IMG/VR virus record: IMGVR_UViG_3300028569_002801
Coordinates: 50,716 to 114,715 of that record
DNA from: a virus
Strand: one strand, 5' to 3'
Length of the DNA: 64,000 nt
Shown: piece by piece, positions 28,772-57,215 of the stretch
How the letters are laid out: each line of letters begins with the position of its first letter
How positions within the stretch are numbered: position 1 is the first letter of the stretch
Position numbers and translations under genes: made by a program
The notes under the pieces: model-generated
The model's database searches: none
Seen by the model: only the letters and a program-made list of their open reading frames with translations
What the model was told of the DNA's origin: nothing

Positions 28772-29401
28772 TTATTCTTCTTCTTGGTAATTATTAAACG
28801 TTTTTTTAATCTCGTTTGGTGATATATTTTCAACGTCGTCAGATGTTAATATATATTCATTTTTACCTGTCTCTTCCATCTCATCTTTTTTATCATCAAA
28901 GAAATCTGTTAATTTTTGGTTATAAGGATAAGAATCTAAAGATCTTAACATTAACTTTTCTTCAGGGGTTTTTTGTCTGTACTTGTCAAATTTAGTTTCT
29001 AATGAATTTATTTTATCCATAATATCATCCATATGGGATAGTTTTGACTCTAAATCATCTAACTTACTAAAAATACCATCCATAAATTCGTCTTGTTTGG
29101 TTTTAATATCTTGTTGTGCCGTAACCAAATCTGTAATATCAATTTCTTCTGAGGTATCACCATCACCTTTATCGTCACCAACTTCTTCAACATCAGGATC
29201 GTTTTCAACGTCTATTGGTTCAGGAATTGCCCCATCTGCCGGTGGAGCAGGAGCTGCAGGTGGTGCAGGTGCCGCTGGGTCAGCAGGTGGTGCAGGTGCC
29301 GCTGGATCTACTGGCGGTGGTGGAGCATCTTGTTCATTTAAATATGAATTAATATTATTAAATCTTCTTAGTTCCTCCAATATTTTATTATCTATTCCCA
29401 T
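28772..29401 (-). CDS. Hypothetical protein with Pro/Ala-rich tract and coiled coil
   Basis: Of 209 residues, about 26-62 form a Pro/Ala-rich tract of repeated DPAAPAPPA-type units, followed by a strongly acidic stretch (63-90) and a predicted coiled coil (about 93-143, ILE/LEU heptads such as KLDDLESKLSHMDDIMDKINSL is split here as two short heptad runs). The end is acidic. The disordered, acidic, helical makeup resembles scaffolding or assembly proteins, but no family is recognised. It ends at the terminator 28711-28739, so it closes the tail operon rather than joining the replication island. Confidence 0.6.
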   Translation of the reverse strand: MGIDNKILEELRRFNNINSYLNEQDAPPPPVDPAAPAPPADPAAPAPPAAPAPPADGAIPEPIDVENDPDVEEVGDDKGDGDTSEEIDITDLVTAQQDIKTKQDEFMDGIFSKLDDLESKLSHMDDIMDKINSLETKFDKYRQKTPEEKLMLRSLDSYPYNQKLTDFFDDKKDEMEETGKNEYILTSDDVENISPNEIKKTFNNYQEEE

Positions 29402-46788: not shown

Positions 46789-47664
46789 TTAAACTTCTTT
46801 TTTTACTCCTCCTTTAGTTAAATACATTCTTACTGGTTTTTCTTTATATTCTTTTTCTATAAAATCTTTCATTTTATCAATATTTCTAGGATCATCATCT
46901 GAAAATCCAATAAAAGGGATAATTTCGTCATTTATAATGTCATTTTTAAAGAAACTTTTTTTACCTATCTCTTGAGCCATCTGTTTACAATATGAAATAA
47001 ATTTTCTCATTGCAACAATTTTTCCTTCTTCAGGATTAGCCGCAGTACCCTCACCGAAGGTTACAGGTTCAAACTTACATAAATCTAAATACTCAGTAAT
47101 AATAGTCTTATCGTCGAAGTTTATATTATAAGACTCATCTATTGGGTTTTCTGCCCAATTCCTATATTGTTTTAACGATTCAACAACTCTTTTACTATCA
47201 ATACCATTATGATTAGAAAGAATGTAATTTAATGTTGCCTCTTTTAATGTTTCAGGATTATGTCCTCTTGCAGTAATAATTGCAAAAATAGAACCACCAT
47301 TAAGACACTCTACAAAATCATTCCATGAAGGTCCAGGACTTGCTGACATGGTATCAATAATGAATCTCTTATCTCCTTTAACTCCGAAGTTTCTAAATGG
47401 GTCAGGAGCATAATCAATTACAGTTGTTCCCTTATATGAAAATGGTTCTTTTCCTATTTGGTGTCTATGTTCAGCAAAATCTTCAGTGGACATACCAACC
47501 GCCTCGTTATTTTTTGTCATCACAATAATATGTGTTGGCATAAAAACAATATTATCATCCCAATCAAAAGCATAGTATTTACAATCAGGAGTCCCTTCTA
47601 ATGTGACACCCTCATTTAAATTTTTACGTTTTAGGTAATTAAATACATGTCTTTTAACATCCAT
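46789..47664 (-). CDS. HAD-superfamily phosphatase-like protein between sheath and tube
   Basis: In the 291 residues motif I is YYAFDWDDNIVFMPT (D34 and D36, about 30-44), motif II is FAIITARGHNPE (about 127-138), and the acidic motif IV is GFSDDDPRNIDKM (about 252-264). This is the HAD core layout, so a phosphatase or phosphotransferase acting on a small molecule or nucleic-acid end is plausible; the substrate is unknown. Its start overlaps the stop of a 45-residue gene (TAATG). An enzyme gene between sheath and tube genes is an unusual placement. Confidence 0.7.
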   Translation of the reverse strand: MDVKRHVFNYLKRKNLNEGVTLEGTPDCKYYAFDWDDNIVFMPTHIIVMTKNNEAVGMSTEDFAEHRHQIGKEPFSYKGTTVIDYAPDPFRNFGVKGDKRFIIDTMSASPGPSWNDFVECLNGGSIFAIITARGHNPETLKEATLNYILSNHNGIDSKRVVESLKQYRNWAENPIDESYNINFDDKTIITEYLDLCKFEPVTFGEGTAANPEEGKIVAMRKFISYCKQMAQEIGKKSFFKNDIINDEIIPFIGFSDDDPRNIDKMKDFIEKEYKEKPVRMYLTKGGVKKEV

Positions 47665-47865: not shown

Positions 47866-50800
47866 TTATACGTCATCAAAAGATGCTCCAGTCGGTGTGA
47901 TAACAAACTCGATGTCTATATATTCTAACGCTCTTGTTGGTTTCAAGTAGATTTTACCTGTTAAAGTATTTGAATCTAAATCTTCAGGTGTGTTTGAAAC
48001 CGCCACACGGAAATCAATTAAACCTCTATCTCTTCTGATACTATCCAATATTGGGTTAACAGAATCTAAAAAGTCTTGTCGTACTTTTTGATCGTTTTGT
48101 TCAAACAATAACCTAATTGCTACAGCTGAAATCAATTTACGTGCTTGTAATAACAATCTTCTAACGTTGATTCTATCAAGTGCAGATTCTTTAATTTGCA
48201 TTGTTTTGTTACCCCAAATTACCGTACCTACATCGGAGAAAGTAGCGATTGGGTTAATTCTACCTTTATAAAGTGTATCTCTATCGTCTTGTGTTAATTT
48301 ACGTCTCGCTCTAATTGCGTTAACTAAACCTCTTGTGTACCCCGCAGATGCGAACCAAGGGAACGCAATGTTATCGGTTAATGCTAAATTCTTAACCACT
48401 TCAGAAGTTGGTGGAATATAGATTTGTGTATTGTTAACTGCATCTCTTGTTAAAATCCAAGGGTAGTATGATGCTGTATAGTTAGAATCAATACCTGTTG
48501 CTTCTAAGTTATCAACTACTTGTTGTGGATAAATAAGTCCCTCTTCAATATCGTTGTATGATGGTAAGTATAAATTAAAATCAGGGGTAGTACAAATATA
48601 AATTGAATCCGCTCTATCCGTTTCAATCATATCAATAGCCTCCTCAACTAAATTTGAGTTGTTCACATAGTCAATTCCTGGTGTAGTAAATATGTTAATA
48701 TTTGTCGCTTCAGGATTTGCAAATGTGTTTTGTCCCCATTTATATGCGTAATAGTCAGTATTAGCCCAATTTTCTTGGTTAGGTCCTGATATTGCTTTGA
48801 ATGCTCCCCACCCTGTTGCGGTTGGGTATGTAATACTTGGTTCAGCACCATATTTAAAACCTGATTGTCCTAATGCATATGTGTCTTCATTTGTTCTATA
48901 TTCTCTATATATGTCCCATCCGTCAAAACCTCCGTAAGCCATTAAAGTAAACTTACGAGTGTTTAATCTATAATAAGGACTAGAAGTATCTGTTGGTTCA
49001 GAATTAAATGATCCGACGCCAACCTCAAACGCTGATTGTCCTGATGTTGCGTAACCATTAGCAATCGTTACTACAGTTGCCCCACTATCCATGTGGAATC
49101 CTTTAGTAATATATCCCCATTCCATACCTGTAGTGTCGGTACCTAAATTAGGAGGTAATTGTTTACCCTTATATTCAAAGAAATCATAATCAATTCCTGA
49201 TATGTTTGATATGCCTAAATATGCCTTTCTTGGGTTTTCACCACTTGATATTACGGGATTGTCTCCACCATTAGAAGAACCAAAAGGAGGGTTATAAACA
49301 ACATCACCAGGTTTGAAATATTTAGTCTTATAAACTAAGTATGGAGGAGTTGCGTTGGCGTACTCTCTACTGATATACCCCTCAAATCCACAAGGAAGAG
49401 CATCTATTGGTGATTCCTCACTCATTTCTAACATTATATATTTAGAATTAACTTTGTATTCTCCGTTTGATGTCCCTATTTTATTAGCCACGTAATTGTT
49501 ATTAGACGGATCCAAAGAACAATTAGTGAAACTTTCAATAACTCTTGGGTTTTGATCAGTATCATAAAAATCTCTTATGAATACATCAAAGGTACTTGAG
49601 TTAAAGGATATGTTACCTATCGACATCTTTACAAGTCTGTTTGCTGCGTTTCCATCGGAAATTAAAACAAATTTAAATAACTTGTAAACTTTATTACCTC
49701 TAAGTTCTGAAACCAAAAACGGAGTTGCTGGTGTTTGATATTGTTCTAAATAGAATCCTATTGAATCGTTATTTAACGATCTTGCTCCTGGTAAATCTAT
49801 CAAATCACAATATAATCCTCTAATCTTTCCTGATCTATAACCTGTAGTTAAAAGACTTGTATATGTTTCTTCAACAAATAAAGGAACCTGAGTTCTATCT
49901 TTACCAAAGTTATTTCTTCCAAATACTTTAGAAATGAAGTTTTTATCTGAGGACAACATTGACGTTTGGAATTCAAACACATCACCGTCGGACGATACTC
50001 CTGAAATTGAGAATGGTAAATAAGGGTTTTTAGTCACCGCAGAATACGAACCTGTACAAATCATTTGTACGTCGGTAACTCCTGTTACTTCATAAGATGG
50101 TCCTGACTGAGTTGAGTTATAATTAGAAATACCTCTTGATCTTAATGTCGCAACGACTAAATCATCGTAATCTAAGAATGGTGTACCTGAATAATTAGTA
50201 TTATAGAAAACACAAGAACCTGAGAAGTTACCACTTGAACCTGTTAAAGTACTTAGTGCAGCCCCAAAACCTTGTCCATAATATGAACTAATATCAGTAA
50301 TTGGGTTTTGTGAATAATTAAATAATGCATAGTACCAAGCATCATTAGTTGTTGCCGATAAATTAGCTAAAGATAAATTTACATTATTTACACCAAAAGA
50401 CTCTGTGTATGCTGTAATTGTACCAGTACCATTTAATGTTGTACCTGTAACTAAATTGAATGTACCTCCACTTACGGTACCCCAAAATAGTGCGGTAGAT
50501 CCTGTGGATGGTGAAGCATTTGCAAATGCATTAACTTGACTTGATATGAATACTCTTAAATCAGAATCAATAGTAGATGTCCCCCCATTAAATTCTGTAT
50601 ATGTATTGTAAAAATTATTATTAACATTGATTGTACTTGGTACAGTCATGTTGTAAGTAATATTAGCACTTGTACCCGTAGTTCCTGTAAATGTTAAAAT
50701 AGTTGAAGAAACTCCCGTTGCCGCAACTGTGGAAGGGTTAACGTTACCTATTGTTGTGATTGACCAAGATGGTCCTGCGTCGTATCCTGATAATCCTAAT

Positions 50801-51087
50801 ACTCTTGTTACAAAAAGTTGATTTGATTGTTGTAGGTATGCCTTAGTAATATATGCTAATTCATATTTAGGTATTTGTGTGTTAACGAATTTTTCAGGAC
50901 TTGTGCCACCAAAATATACTTGAAACTCGTCAAAGTTTGTGATAAATATTGGTTCAAAAGCGGGACCCTGAAGAGTTTCACCAACTACACCTAAAGTTGT
51001 TACACCTACACTTTGTGCAACAAAAGTTAAATCTCTTTCTGAAGTGTAGACTCCAGGTGAAACGAAAACTTTGTTTGATGATGCCAT
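47866..51087 (-). CDS. 18: Tail sheath protein, gp18-like, unusually long
   Basis: Of 1073 residues, the N-terminal FVSPGVYTSERDLTFVA (about 8-24) and the C-terminal third are gp18-like: FSDVGTVIWGNKTMQ, then INVRRLLLQARKLISAVAIRLLFEQ (split as INVRRLLLQARK and LISAVAIRLLFEQ) and a final IDIEFVITPTGA. T4 gp18 is 659 residues; here about 400 extra residues lie in the middle, rich in Ser, Thr, Gly and Asn, probably surface insertions on each sheath subunit. A TATTTATA box is at 51122-51129. The hairpin at 47828-47851 follows the stop. Confidence 0.92.
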   Translation of the reverse strand: MASSNKVFVSPGVYTSERDLTFVAQSVGVTTLGVVGETLQGPAFEPIFITNFDEFQVYFGGTSPEKFVNTQIPKYELAYITKAYLQQSNQLFVTRVLGLSGYDAGPSWSITTIGNVNPSTVAATGVSSTILTFTGTTGTSANITYNMTVPSTINVNNNFYNTYTEFNGGTSTIDSDLRVFISSQVNAFANASPSTGSTALFWGTVSGGTFNLVTGTTLNGTGTITAYTESFGVNNVNLSLANLSATTNDAWYYALFNYSQNPITDISSYYGQGFGAALSTLTGSSGNFSGSCVFYNTNYSGTPFLDYDDLVVATLRSRGISNYNSTQSGPSYEVTGVTDVQMICTGSYSAVTKNPYLPFSISGVSSDGDVFEFQTSMLSSDKNFISKVFGRNNFGKDRTQVPLFVEETYTSLLTTGYRSGKIRGLYCDLIDLPGARSLNNDSIGFYLEQYQTPATPFLVSELRGNKVYKLFKFVLISDGNAANRLVKMSIGNISFNSSTFDVFIRDFYDTDQNPRVIESFTNCSLDPSNNNYVANKIGTSNGEYKVNSKYIMLEMSEESPIDALPCGFEGYISREYANATPPYLVYKTKYFKPGDVVYNPPFGSSNGGDNPVISSGENPRKAYLGISNISGIDYDFFEYKGKQLPPNLGTDTTGMEWGYITKGFHMDSGATVVTIANGYATSGQSAFEVGVGSFNSEPTDTSSPYYRLNTRKFTLMAYGGFDGWDIYREYRTNEDTYALGQSGFKYGAEPSITYPTATGWGAFKAISGPNQENWANTDYYAYKWGQNTFANPEATNINIFTTPGIDYVNNSNLVEEAIDMIETDRADSIYICTTPDFNLYLPSYNDIEEGLIYPQQVVDNLEATGIDSNYTASYYPWILTRDAVNNTQIYIPPTSEVVKNLALTDNIAFPWFASAGYTRGLVNAIRARRKLTQDDRDTLYKGRINPIATFSDVGTVIWGNKTMQIKESALDRINVRRLLLQARKLISAVAIRLLFEQNDQKVRQDFLDSVNPILDSIRRDRGLIDFRVAVSNTPEDLDSNTLTGKIYLKPTRALEYIDIEFVITPTGASFDDV

Positions 51088-53135: not shown

Positions 53136-53170
53136 CTTTAATTGATTTTTTATAATTATTTTGTTATTTT

Positions 53171-53178
53171 TATTTATA
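53171..53178 (+). promoter_or_regulatory. TATTTATA box (plus strand)
   Basis: Plus-strand TATTTATA five bases before the SNF2 ATG at 53184, back to back with the gp14-like box. Confidence 0.5.
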
Positions 53179-53183
53179 ACGAT

Positions 53184-54950
53184 ATGGAAGACGTAATTTT
53201 AAAAACTCCTGAATCAAGAGCTCAATATTTATTAGATAATTATGTTGGGTCAAATAACTATATACTTAATTTAAAACATAAAAAAGAAAATAGTAAGTCT
53301 TTTACCTTAACAAGGGCTCAGTCCGAATACATTATAAACTTTCACGGAAGAACACCAAAAGTTGCTAAAAAATGGGTTAAACTTGATTCGTATTTTGGTA
53401 AAAAAATGATGGAGGAGAAAATGTATACAAAAGAACCAACAGAGATATATGTTGAAAAACTTTTGGTTGAGAAGGATAAGTCGTACCATATATGGGGTAA
53501 AATATTTAGTGGTGATACAATACATGATTTTTGGATGCCAAAATCTGCAATCATAAAAGACAATGAAGTTAAAAATATTGTTGTCGATTACACGAAATAT
53601 GAACATAGAGTTCCTATGGAACACCAAAAAGACGCTATTCAAAAATTAGTCGGGAATAAAAAGTTTATTTTGGCGGATGATATGGGACTTGGAAAAACAA
53701 CGTCAACAATCATATCTGCATTAGAAACAGGTGCAAAAAAAATATTAATAGTTTGTCCAGCATCTTTAAAAATTAATTGGCAACGTGAAATTGAAAATTA
53801 CTCAGATAGAACCATATATATTGCCGAAGGAAAGAAATTTTCAAATGAACATGATTTTGTTATAATAAATTACGACATATTAAAAAACTTTCACGATCCA
53901 AAAAAACAAGACGAGTCAACAATTTTAAATACAAAGTTTGATTTAGTTATTATGGATGAGGCACATATGATATCAAACCCACAAGCACAAAGAACAAAAA
54001 TAGTTAATGATATTTGTGATAAGGTTGATAGAGTTTGGTTATTGACAGGAACCCCGATGACATCACGACCAATGAATTACTATAATCTTTTAAGTTTAGT
54101 TGAGAGTCCTGTAGCATCTAATTGGATGGCTTACGCTAGAAGGTACTGTAATGGGTTTCAGTTTAGTGTGGGGAAAAGAAAAGTATGGAATGTTACAGGA
54201 GCATCCAATTTAGATGAACTAAGAGAAAGAACACAATCACATATTCTTAGAAGATTAAAGGAAGAAGTTTTAGATTTACCTGATAAAATCATTACTCCCG
54301 TTTATTTAAGATTAAAATCTAAAGACTATGAAGAGCTCATGGGTGAATACTATAATTGGTACGACAATAATTCAGAAGAGTCATCCTCACTTACAATACA
54401 GTTTGGTAAATTAATGAAAGTTAGAAAAGTGATTGCTGAAGAGAAAGTTAAAAATACTATTGAGTTAGCAGAAAATATTATTGAACAAGGAAAAAAAGTT
54501 ATCATATTTACTAATTTTACTGATACGTTACGAACCATTTATGAACATTTTGGAAAACAGGCAGTTTATTTAGACGGGTCTTGTTCAAAACCTCATCGTC
54601 AAAAATCCGTTGACGACTTTCAAGAAAATGACAAAATTAAAGTGTTTGTTGGTAACTTAAAAGCTGCAGGGGTTGGTATTACTTTAACATCGGCGGAAGC
54701 GGTAATAATGAATGACTTATCGTTTGTCCCTGCTGAACATGCACAAGCAGAGGATCGTTCACACAGAATTGGACAAAAAAAATCAACTTCAGTTTACTAT
54801 CCTCTTTTTGAAAACACAATAGAAGGGGCAATTTACGATATCCTTAGTAGAAAGAAAAAAATCATATCAAAGGTTATGGGTGACGATATGTTATTAGACG
54901 ACGCATCTTCAATAGAAGAAATGTTAACTATAATTTCTAATGGTAGGTGA
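53184..54950 (+). CDS. SNF2/UvsW-type DNA helicase
   Basis: The start is placed at ATG 53184 (MEDVILKT), five bases after a TATTTATA box; the longer reading from 53142 would run through that box. The 588 residues carry the SF2/SNF2 motifs: Walker A ADDMGLGKTT (about 163-172), DEAH-type MDEAH (about 257-261), LLTGTPMTSRP (about 287-297), and the C-terminal LDGSCSKPHRQKSVDDF and DRSHRIGQKKSTSVYY. This resembles SMARCAL1-like fork-remodelling enzymes and fills the role of T4 UvsW (fork regression, R-loop removal). It heads the plus-strand block. Confidence 0.88.
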   Translation: MEDVILKTPESRAQYLLDNYVGSNNYILNLKHKKENSKSFTLTRAQSEYIINFHGRTPKVAKKWVKLDSYFGKKMMEEKMYTKEPTEIYVEKLLVEKDKSYHIWGKIFSGDTIHDFWMPKSAIIKDNEVKNIVVDYTKYEHRVPMEHQKDAIQKLVGNKKFILADDMGLGKTTSTIISALETGAKKILIVCPASLKINWQREIENYSDRTIYIAEGKKFSNEHDFVIINYDILKNFHDPKKQDESTILNTKFDLVIMDEAHMISNPQAQRTKIVNDICDKVDRVWLLTGTPMTSRPMNYYNLLSLVESPVASNWMAYARRYCNGFQFSVGKRKVWNVTGASNLDELRERTQSHILRRLKEEVLDLPDKIITPVYLRLKSKDYEELMGEYYNWYDNNSEESSSLTIQFGKLMKVRKVIAEEKVKNTIELAENIIEQGKKVIIFTNFTDTLRTIYEHFGKQAVYLDGSCSKPHRQKSVDDFQENDKIKVFVGNLKAAGVGITLTSAEAVIMNDLSFVPAEHAQAEDRSHRIGQKKSTSVYYPLFENTIEGAIYDILSRKKKIISKVMGDDMLLDDASSIEEMLTIISNGR

Positions 54951-54958
54951 TATTTATA
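54951..54958 (+). promoter_or_regulatory. TATTTATA box, 4 nt from ATG (plus strand)
   Basis: Plus-strand GATATTTATATATCATG between the helicase stop and the SOD-fusion start. Confidence 0.5.
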
Positions 54959-54962
54959 TATC

Positions 54963-56048
54963 ATGGATGTTGAAATTAAATATGACGGGTGTAACCCAAC
55001 TAAAGAAGAAAAAATACTAATTAATCGTTTTATTAATAATCTTAAGAAATCTCATCCTCTTAACGATGACGTAACCATTATTTTTCAAACGGAAAGATCA
55101 GAAAAAATGACAACGGGAGTTAGAACCAATAAACATAAATTAAAAATATTAGTTAAGGATAGACTTAATAGAGATATTTTAAGGACGGTTGCCCATGAGT
55201 GGGTTCACGAATATCAAAGGAACGTTTTAAAAAGAAAAAAACAAAAAGACGTTGGGAGTGAGAATGAGAACGAAGCCAATGCAAAATCCGGAGAAGAGGT
55301 AAAAAAGTTTGAAAAAACAAATAAAAAATTAGAAAAAACTATATATTCTAGATTTAGTGAGGAAATTTCTAAAATAGAAAACATTTTAAATGAAGAGATA
55401 CCAAGTAATCGTAAAATCATTTCAGAAATAAAAAAAATAAGTATAGAACAATTACCCTATGATTACGATTCTTTAGGTTCATTTATAGATGATGAAACTA
55501 TGAAAACCCACTATACTAAACACTATAAGGGGTATGTTGAGAAATTAAATCTTGAGTTAGAGAAAGTATCGGGTAAAGATATGGACATAGAAGAGATAAT
55601 AAAAAAAATATCAAGATTTAATAAAAAAGTTAAAAACAATGGGGGTGGTGCATTCAACCACGCATTATTTTGGAAAATGATGACACCTAAAAAAACAACA
55701 CTTAAAAATCCATTATTGTTTAAAATTGAAAAAACTTTTGAATCTGTAGAATTGTTTAAAGAAAAGTTTGAGGAAATTGCAAAAACCAGATTTGGTTCAG
55801 GTTGGGTGTGGTTAATATTAACTAAAAATAATACATTAAAAATCGTAACTACCCCAAATCAAGATAACCCATTAATGGACACTGAAAAAAATGGGGGTTA
55901 TCCGTTACTTGGTTTAGATATATGGGAGCACTCATATTATTTAAAATATAAAAACGAAAGAGATAAGTATATTCATAACTTTTGGAAAGTGGTGAATTGG
56001 GATTTTGTTTGTGATGTGTATGTATCCCAAACAAAAAAGAAGATATAA
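54963..56048 (+). CDS. Fusion of HExxH metallopeptidase-like domain with Mn-type superoxide dismutase
   Basis: In the 361 residues, 65-110 contain VAHEWVHEYQR (H78, E79, H82) and a downstream ENENEANAKSG that could supply a third ligand, the zincin layout seen in small phage proteins. Residues 163-355 are superoxide dismutase: LPYDYDSL, H183 in MKTHYTKHYKGYV, H233 in NNGGGAFNHALFW, D319 and H323 in DIWEHSYYLKY, with Y191. Q300 in NQDNPLM is the Mn-type glutamine. All four metal ligands are present. A coiled-coil-like linker (110-160) joins the halves. It follows the helicase by 12 bases with a TATTTATA box. The peptidase half is less certain. Confidence 0.85.
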   Translation: MDVEIKYDGCNPTKEEKILINRFINNLKKSHPLNDDVTIIFQTERSEKMTTGVRTNKHKLKILVKDRLNRDILRTVAHEWVHEYQRNVLKRKKQKDVGSENENEANAKSGEEVKKFEKTNKKLEKTIYSRFSEEISKIENILNEEIPSNRKIISEIKKISIEQLPYDYDSLGSFIDDETMKTHYTKHYKGYVEKLNLELEKVSGKDMDIEEIIKKISRFNKKVKNNGGGAFNHALFWKMMTPKKTTLKNPLLFKIEKTFESVELFKEKFEEIAKTRFGSGWVWLILTKNNTLKIVTTPNQDNPLMDTEKNGGYPLLGLDIWEHSYYLKYKNERDKYIHNFWKVVNWDFVCDVYVSQTKKKI

Positions 56049-56093: not shown

Positions 56094-57215
56094 ATGGCAA
56101 CTACCGTAATTATTACAGAACCAGAAAGAAGTAGGATGTACAAAAGAATTAGAAATCTTTTGGGTGCCCCTTTACGTTCAGTGGAATTAGAGGACGAACA
56201 ACTTGATTCCCTTTTAGAACTTTCAATTGAAGACTACGAACAGGCGGTTCAAGATTGGTTAATAGAGTCCCAATGGGCATCTGTTGCTGGATTAAATGTT
56301 GAGGAACAATCAATAGCAAGAGCTCTTACAACAAAAGATATGAATTGGGAAACCCAATACACCTACGCATACTCAAAGATAGTTGGGCTGCAGGCTGGAG
56401 GAGAATGGGTTTTAAAAAAAGACTACATAGATTTAGTACCAAACCAACAAGTATATGAAATACCTGCTTGTCGAGAAGTTAATGAACTTTTATGGTTTAG
56501 TCGATCAGAATTAGATGCTGCATACTTCGATCCTTTTATGGGTGGTTTTGGTGGTATGGGTGGTGTTGGTTTAGGTGGTGGTGCGGGATTTTCACAAATG
56601 GGAAATTCGGGTAACTATTTTGTAACATCAGCATTTGATATTCTTTTAAGAATGTCTGACATAAATATTAAAAAAAGAATTATAACAGGAGATTTAACCT
56701 ACAGAATAACGGCATTACCTGAAGGTAAAAAGGCGTTACATCTTTATAACGTTCCTGGCGGTAAATTTGATTTTGGTACTATAAAGAATAAAGGATACAA
56801 AGTTTGGTATTGGTATTACGAAACTTGTGATAGAGAGGACTGTTTGGCTAATAATCCTGACGTTATACGATTACCGTCCGACGTTTCGGTTGAAAGATTA
56901 AGATGGGATAAATTAAATTATCCTGCACAAACTTGGGTTAGAAGATGGTTTACCGCATACTGTAAAGAAACATTAGCAAGAGTTCGTGGTAAATTTAGTG
57001 GTAACTTAAAAACCCCTGACTCAGAGCTAACCTTAGAATACCAAAGTTTACAAACTGAAGCCAAAGACGAAAAGACAATGTTACAAGAAGAATTAAAAAC
57101 TAGACTTGAAAGGATGCGTCCTGAAAAACTTATGGAGGCAAAGGCCCTTCAGGCGGAAAATCTTAATAAGTTATTAAAATTTAGAGCATTCACAAGTCCT
57201 TATAACGTAATATAA
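56094..57215 (+). CDS. 13: Neck/head completion protein, gp13-like
   Basis: Of 373 residues, the N-terminal ITEPERSRMYKRIRNLLGAP and LSIEDYEQAVQDWLIES, a GGEWVLKKDYIDLVPNQQVYE segment (split as GGEWVLKKDYIDLVP and NQQVYEIP, about 101-121) and C-terminal WVRRWFTAYCKETLARVRGKF (about 284-304) fit gp13-type neck proteins. A Gly-rich loop of ~25 residues at about 150-175 is inserted. T4 gp13 (309 residues) seals the filled head with gp14. The start is preceded by TATTTATA (56073-56080). Confidence 0.8.
   Translation: MATTVIITEPERSRMYKRIRNLLGAPLRSVELEDEQLDSLLELSIEDYEQAVQDWLIESQWASVAGLNVEEQSIARALTTKDMNWETQYTYAYSKIVGLQAGGEWVLKKDYIDLVPNQQVYEIPACREVNELLWFSRSELDAAYFDPFMGGFGGMGGVGLGGGAGFSQMGNSGNYFVTSAFDILLRMSDINIKKRIITGDLTYRITALPEGKKALHLYNVPGGKFDFGTIKNKGYKVWYWYYETCDREDCLANNPDVIRLPSDVSVERLRWDKLNYPAQTWVRRWFTAYCKETLARVRGKFSGNLKTPDSELTLEYQSLQTEAKDEKTMLQEELKTRLERMRPEKLMEAKALQAENLNKLLKFRAFTSPYNVI

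What the first reader, a model, noticed from the sequence alone, without database searches (positions are those of the whole stretch)
54963..56048. Superoxide dismutase fused to an HExxH metallopeptidase-like domain in a phage
One continuous frame joins a zincin motif (H78-E79-x-x-H82) to a full Mn-type SOD domain with all four metal ligands (H183, H233, D319, H323) and the Mn-type Gln300. Phage SODs are rare and I know of no such fusion. It sits between the helicase and gp13 genes with its own upstream box, so it may be a late, possibly virion-associated, protein.
Basis: partly seen in the sequence, partly recalled or inferred. Interest (0 to 1): 0.8.

Follow-up and report, generated by a model that had tools for sequence, protein, structure and literature searches.

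The report
Phage superoxide dismutase with protease-like domain
A family of large, mostly lake-dwelling phages carries an antioxidant enzyme (superoxide dismutase) preceded by, and often fused to, other domains at what look like head-protease cut sites, which suggests the enzyme is packed inside the virus particle and injected into the host cell.

Summary
Window 54963-56048 (+) is one 361-aa frame joining a small HExxH...E zincin-like domain (aa 1-127) to a complete Mn-type Fe/Mn superoxide dismutase (aa ~160-354). It is not an assembly error: 55 non-redundant IMG/VR homologues keep the fusion and all catalytic ligands, nearly always between a helicase and gp13.

The fusion is one stage of a series. 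Sister phages at the same site encode the SOD without the zincin, starting with a ~30-aa leader and usually ending in a PD-(D/E)xK-like domain. The zincin also exists alone elsewhere in relatives, and one contig has the two as overlapping genes. The linker in the fused protein is homologous to that leader.

Leader or linker ends in an invariant [I/L/V]-x-E directly before the SOD (55/55 fused, 67/67 unfused), close to L/I-x-E, the published motif of the T4 prohead protease gp21. Relatives encode a gp21-type protease and a Gp23 capsid protein with the same kind of site.

Best explanation: a late, capsid-packaged precursor, cut during head maturation, that delivers SOD (sometimes with nuclease-like cargo) into the host. 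Packaging and activity are inferred, not shown. No published phage account found; chlorovirus PBCV-1 packages an unrelated Cu/Zn SOD.

The parts
54950..54960 (+). ATATTTATATA box upstream of the fusion gene (late-promoter-like)
   Evidence: TATTTAT in 53/54 distinct homologous upstream regions, 49 at -12; 2% in random windows
54963..56048 (+). Fusion gene, 361 aa: zincin-like domain + leader-like linker + Mn-type SOD
54963..55343 (+). Zincin-like domain, aa 1-127 (strands, HExxH helix, second helix with Glu)
   Evidence: AF2 of the N-terminal part pLDDT 88, pTM 0.81; stand-alone 129-aa homologues end at about this point
55194..55208 (+). HExxH motif, aa 78-82 (HEWVH); H78, E79, H82 invariant in 30 aligned homologues
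55266..55268 (+). E102, probable third zinc ligand (NE motif on the next helix)
   Evidence: invariant; 55/55 carry HExxHE...NE
55344..55427 (+). Linker, aa 128-155, homologous to the N-terminal leader of unfused SOD proteins; low-confidence/disordered from aa 136
   Evidence: pLDDT <50 for aa 136-162; HHalign 95%, E 1.7e-8, leader versus linker
55386..55394 (+). LNE, aa 142-144: first L/I-x-E site in the linker
55419..55427 (+). ISE, aa 153-155: predicted cleavage site; E155 invariant, aa 153 always I/L/V
   Evidence: 55/55 fused and 67/67 unfused proteins
55440..56024 (+). Mn-type superoxide dismutase domain, aa 160-354; metal ligands H183, H233, D319, H323; outer-sphere Q300; G317 at D-2
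   Evidence: metal rules PMC10172142
56072..56082 (+). Second ATATTTATATA box, upstream of gp13
56094..57215 (+). gp13-like neck/head-completion gene, directly downstream in 51/53 fused and 76/77 unfused loci; never fused to the SOD in the fetched loci
53142..54950 (+). DNA helicase gene, directly upstream in 52/55 fused and 76/80 unfused loci

Best explanation
The gene encodes a precursor of a capsid-internal, ejected protein of a large T4-like phage, probably infecting Bacteroidota. In late infection the TATTTATA-box gene is expressed, as is gp13. The leader segment (at the N-terminus in the unfused form, between zincin and SOD here) carries the protein into the prohead core, as capsid-targeting sequences do in T4. 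The gp21-type prohead protease then cuts after E155 (and probably after E144), releasing a free Mn-type SOD with a near-native N-terminus and a separate zincin domain; in relatives, cuts after the SOD also free a PD-(D/E)xK-like cargo domain. These products are injected with the DNA. SOD would remove superoxide at the start of infection. The zincin would act as a second small effector or protease. Shown: architecture, conservation, synteny, box, homology of leader and linker, and presence of the protease and Gp23 in relatives. Inferred: packaging, cleavage, injection, enzyme activities and purpose.
For: (1) Sister phages at the same locus encode leader(~30 aa)-SOD-X without zincin (80/80 loci; G001); the leader is homologous to the linker of the fused form. 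(2) Position 155 is Glu in 55/55 non-redundant fused proteins inside an otherwise variable linker that AF2 leaves disordered; [I/L/V]xE ends the leader in 67/67 unfused proteins. (3) L/I-x-E density is 8.3-8.4 per 100 aa in leader/linker and 5.3-5.6 at the SOD-cargo junction, against 0.8-1.3 in the folded domains; residue shuffles give 77 against 143 observed (fused leaders, largest of 500 shuffles 100), 14.5 against 42 and 54 against 154 (junctions). (4) T4 gp21 cuts after L/I-X-E (PMC9026906); giant-phage homologues also cut after Glu, with propeptides up to 127 aa (PMC5694885). (5) Five of eight tested records hold a Peptidase_S77 gp21 homologue, two of them in genomes with the SOD fusion; their Gp23 has a ~60-aa propeptide-like start ending SFLINE|ATS, and another gene starts MLNDIIKKILRE|ATSDSSG, sharing the post-cut sequence. 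(6) Many other proteins of these phages start with short leaders ending in xxE. (7) Late-type box and fixed gp13 neighbourhood. (8) Precedent: chlorovirus PBCV-1 packages a late-expressed SOD and infected cells accumulate less superoxide (PMC7019647).
Against: No virion proteomics for these phages was available. L/I-x-E is a short motif and leaders are rich in I, L, E, so part of the enrichment is composition (the shuffles recover about half for leaders). T4 targeting sequences are N-terminal, whereas in the fused form the leader is internal. The window's own record is a 114.7-kb fragment in which no such protease is found. E155 could be kept for SOD folding or assembly. The stand-alone zincin has no leader.
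Confidence: 0.6

Rival explanations
1. Intracellular auxiliary enzyme: the SOD acts in the infected cell's cytoplasm during late infection to protect phage synthesis; leader and linker are coiled-coil or solubility segments and the zincin is an unrelated passenger. Nothing is packaged.
For: Free SOD genes occur in other phages (Callisto, MIJ3, Vibrio 2.275 and others). All catalytic residues are kept. The leader looks helical and amphipathic.
Against: Does not explain an invariant Glu with I/L/V at P3 in an otherwise variable linker, repeated L/I-x-E sites at module junctions, or the nuclease-like cargo.
Confidence: 0.22
2. Self-processing polyprotein: the N-terminal zincin is the protease that cuts the linker and frees the SOD (the role proposed for zincins in polyvalent proteins, PMC5512222).
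For: The zincin has HExxH and a conserved Glu. Zincins are the hub domain of polyvalent proteins and are proposed to process them. It sits directly upstream of the putative sites.
Against: The same sites occur in all 80 unfused loci, which lack a zincin in the protein, so the sites do not depend on the fusion. Some relatives keep the zincin as a separate distant gene.
Confidence: 0.08
3. Neck or tail structural protein: the domains are structural parts of the virion attached near gp13, not an injected enzyme.
For: Fixed adjacency to gp13 and a late-type box.
Against: Full conservation of the SOD active site and variable C-terminal cargo, absent in the window clade, argue against a fixed structural role. 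gp13 is never fused to it.
Confidence: 0.06
4. Fusion caused by frameshift or assembly error joining two neighbouring genes.
For: One contig (L169/L230) has the two as overlapping ORFs.
Against: 165 loci, 55 non-redundant, carry the continuous frame.
Confidence: 0.01

Closest known systems
Cellular Mn-type Fe/Mn superoxide dismutase (SodFM, E. coli SodA type)
   Same: Both Pfam domains, four ligands, C-terminal Gln and Gly at D-2
   Different: Only 35-48% identical to the cellular SODs found; preceded by a leader or zincin and often followed by a nuclease-like domain; the phage SODs form their own clade in a tree with limited cellular sampling
T4 internal head proteins (IPI-III, Alt) with capsid targeting sequences cut by gp21
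   Same: Short N-terminal leader ending L/I-x-E in the unfused form; gp21-type protease and Gp23 in relatives
   Different: Cargo is an antioxidant enzyme; in the window the leader is internal, behind a zincin domain; packaging untested
Polyvalent proteins of phages and conjugative elements (PMC5512222)
   Same: Multidomain, zincin-containing, likely delivered, variable cargo
   Different: SOD is not mentioned in that paper and the zincin hits no Pfam model
Chlorovirus PBCV-1 A245R Cu/Zn SOD, packaged in the virion (PMC7019647)
   Same: A viral SOD, late-expressed and virion-packaged: the proposed function
   Different: Unrelated enzyme family (Cu/Zn), eukaryotic algal virus, not known to be fused
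bS21-encoding phages of freshwater Bacteroidetes (PMC9723584)
   Same: Relatives with this SOD family have the same head-gene layout with a reverse-strand bS21 gene
   Different: That paper's main text does not mention superoxide

Membership tests
Fe/Mn superoxide dismutase (SodFM) | Sod_Fe_N and Sod_Fe_C domains | tested here: met
   both far above the gathering score
Fe/Mn superoxide dismutase (SodFM) | Four metal ligands (3 His, 1 Asp) | tested here: met
   H183, H233, D319, H323 invariant; the ligand motifs in 55/55 fused proteins
Fe/Mn superoxide dismutase (SodFM) | Mn preference: C-terminal Gln and Gly/Ala at D-2 | tested here: met
   Q300 and G317; statistical rule from PMC10172142, not proof of metal
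Fe/Mn superoxide dismutase (SodFM) | Superoxide dismutation activity | not testable with these tools
   Needs purified protein
Gluzincin-type zincin | HExxH plus a downstream Glu on the next helix | tested here: met
   H78, E79, H82, E102 invariant; 55/55
Gluzincin-type zincin | Zincin fold | tested here: inconclusive
   AF2 pTM 0.81; viral matches to IrrE- and SprT-like proteins at E down to about 1e-5; no PDB match below 0.001, best M61 peptidase 0.014
Polyvalent protein zincin (MPTase) | Match to a described zincin family | tested here: not met
   No Pfam family above cut-off for aa 1-160
T4-type capsid-targeted internal head protein | L/I-x-E cleavage motif at the end of a leader | tested here: met
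T4-type capsid-targeted internal head protein | gp21-type protease in the same genome | tested here: inconclusive
   Present in 5 of 8 records, two with the SOD fusion; not found in the window's 114.7-kb fragment
T4-type capsid-targeted internal head protein | Found, cleaved, in the virion | not testable with these tools
   Needs virion mass spectrometry
PD-(D/E)xK nuclease (C-terminal domain of relatives) | Conserved D...(E/Q)xK core motif | tested here: inconclusive
   GxD...QxKP conserved; two cargo types related by HHalign, 93%, E 3e-7; no Pfam hit

The most novel reading that the evidence does not exclude
A widespread family of large lake phages packages a superoxide dismutase in the head as part of a modular precursor (zincin, SOD, nuclease-like cargo) whose modules are separated by prohead-protease sites, so that head maturation works as a polyprotein processor and the virion injects an antioxidant enzyme at the moment of infection.
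Probability: 0.5. Interest if true: 0.78.

Novelty: new variant of a known kind. Interest (0 to 1): 0.64.

Why it matters
If true, phages independently use the same trick as algal and giant viruses: carrying a superoxide dismutase in the particle. That would make it testable whether superoxide is an early barrier to phage infection. It would also show T4-type head maturation used to cut multidomain cargo, and it gives a simple sequence signature (leader ending L/I-x-E) for finding other injected proteins in these freshwater phages.

Tried and rejected
Assembly or frameshift artefact: rejected (55 non-redundant continuous homologues). Fusion to gp13 in relatives with ~740-aa frames: tested and rejected, since the extension is a separate cargo domain and gp13 is always its own gene. 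Pfam, PHROG and PDB sequence searches for the zincin gave nothing significant, and Foldseek against the PDB had no match under 0.001. Pfam for the C-terminal cargo found nothing. The T4 late promoter as I know it (TATAAATA, from memory) was not the enriched motif; its reverse complement TATTTATA was, so I call it a box only. Host by isolate: no close cultured relative; gp13 hits only Microcystis phage Mel-JY01 weakly, the sheath hits many T4-like phages at about 30%. The bacterial SOD donor cannot be named: the genome scan reached only 11 relatives through two patterns. Paper searches for phage virion SOD found none.

Full report
Observation. The frame 54963-56048 (+) is open from ATG to stop, 361 aa. 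Residues 161-349 match both Pfam SOD domains and the best NCBIfam model is MnSOD, though below that model's own cut-off. PDB sequence relatives are SODs, mostly Mn type, best about 1e-58. AlphaFold2 gives fairly confident zincin and SOD regions joined by a disordered stretch, aa 136-162; the N-terminal part folded alone has pLDDT 88 and pTM 0.81. In 30 homologues H78, E79, H82, E102, H183, H233, Q300, D319 and H323 are invariant. Gln300 and Gly317 (two residues before the Asp ligand) are the residues statistically linked to Mn preference (PMC10172142).

Not an artefact, and how widespread. A scan of IMG/VR found 215 stretches encoding relatives. Across the fetched loci 165 carry the full fusion, 55 non-redundant at 95% identity. 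The gene sits directly after a helicase (52/55) and before gp13 (51/53). None of the 50,697 phage records searched shows the fusion; 28 records hold only SOD matches, and the zincin part is weakly matched in one Synechococcus phage, present as two records.

Evolution of the architecture. A further scan, with the SOD of a 322-kb relative (G001), returned 80 loci, none with a zincin in the protein. They sit at the same place (gp13 downstream 76/77, helicase upstream 76/80) and read leader(~30 aa)-SOD-C-terminal domain. In G001 the zincin is a separate 129-aa gene 146 kb away. In contig L169/L230 zincin and leader-SOD are overlapping neighbouring ORFs; the SOD of that contig groups with the leader type in the tree. 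In L164 the zincin is joined to a different C-terminal part. The labels 'zincin' and 'leader' need only two changes on the SOD tree. The linker of the fused form is homologous to the leader of the unfused form (HHalign probability 95%, E 1.7e-8). The simplest reading is that the zincin was added in front of an existing leader-SOD gene. The window's clade has no C-terminal cargo domain.

Cargo domains. Relatives carry unlike C-terminal extensions. The type in unfused proteins and one type in fused proteins share a GxD...QxKP core and are related (HHalign 93%, E 3e-7), which looks like PD-(D/E)xK. This is a motif-level inference; Pfam finds nothing. One 962-aa protein (L174) strings zincin, SOD, two repeats and a nuclease-like domain together, with INES/INEH at the boundaries. 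A protein that looks related to one cargo type, with its own leader, lies between the head protease and the MCP gene in G001.

Cleavage-site argument. T4 gp21 cuts after L/I-X-E and removes N-terminal propeptides of internal and capsid proteins (PMC9026906). Giant-phage prohead proteases also cut after Glu and can remove propeptides of 124-127 aa (PMC5694885), about the length of the zincin part here. In the SOD family, E155 is invariant in 55/55 fused proteins and the same Glu ends 67/67 unfused leaders, each with I, L or V two residues before it. L/I-x-E density is about ten times higher in leader/linker, and about five times higher at the SOD-cargo junction, than in the folded domains. Shuffling residues within each segment recovers only about half (leaders) or a third (junctions) of the sites. 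Several cellular SODs begin close to LPY, so E155 lies outside the usual SOD domain.

Protease and capsid protein in relatives. Peptidase_S77 (gp21) is found in five of eight tested records, two of them with the fusion; Pfam and PHROGs confirm the protease and Gp23 in G003. Gp23 in five relatives starts with a ~60-aa segment ending SFLINE or SHLINE, then ATS; another gene in the same region reads MLNDIIKKILRE, then ATSDSSG. These post-cut sequences match, which supports the site assignment. In the window's record, a fragment, no such protease was found.

Expression. TATTTATA is the most enriched octamer upstream of genes in the window's record (20 against 1.4 expected); it or its core precedes sheath, tube, gp13 and several leader-bearing genes. 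It is conserved upstream of the SOD gene in both architectures (53/54 each, against 2% control). I infer late expression; no transcript data were available.

Who these phages are. Relatives have the portal-protease-Gp23 region with a reverse-strand bS21 gene (PF01165), the layout described for bS21 phages predicted to infect freshwater Bacteroidetes (PMC9723584). bS21 was not found in the window's fragment. The host and habitat of the window phage are therefore inferences.

Judgement. What it works like: a T4 internal head protein with an antioxidant cargo, by sequence logic. Whether it is a member: motif and leader met, protease in relatives met, presence in virions untested. The closest functional precedent is chlorovirus PBCV-1, whose late-expressed Cu/Zn SOD is packaged, with lower superoxide on infection (PMC7019647). 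No paper found describes this for phages, within a library that lacks many subscription journals.

Noticed in passing
G000 outside the window (window coordinates about -44386 to -7382) and 28772-29401, 46789-47664 (-): Many proteins start with short amphipathic leaders ending in xxE (e.g. MNLKNIIRRVLNEQ, MKKIIKLTESDLTRIVRRIIKESE, MNKSFLITEQERKRIIGMH). Three leader patterns fall almost only in the first 40 residues. They may mark a whole set of capsid-targeted proteins.
   Followed up: partly
Window-wide: TATTTATA box upstream of structural and leader-bearing genes; it is the reverse complement of the T4 late promoter core.
   Followed up: partly
L233 2605-3561 (G001): Stand-alone protein with leader MKITISEGQYKILSE between the head protease and MCP genes, resembling one of the SOD cargo domains.
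   Followed up: partly
L164 3965-5497 (G006): Zincin domain joined to an unrelated ~380-aa C-terminal part instead of SOD.
   Followed up: no
46789-47664 (-): Protein with a leader-like start (MDVKRHVFNYLKRKNLNE) followed by what looks like a phosphatase-type domain.
   Followed up: no
47866-51087 (-): Tail sheath protein of 1073 aa, unusually long; only its last ~300 residues match the sheath family.
   Followed up: no
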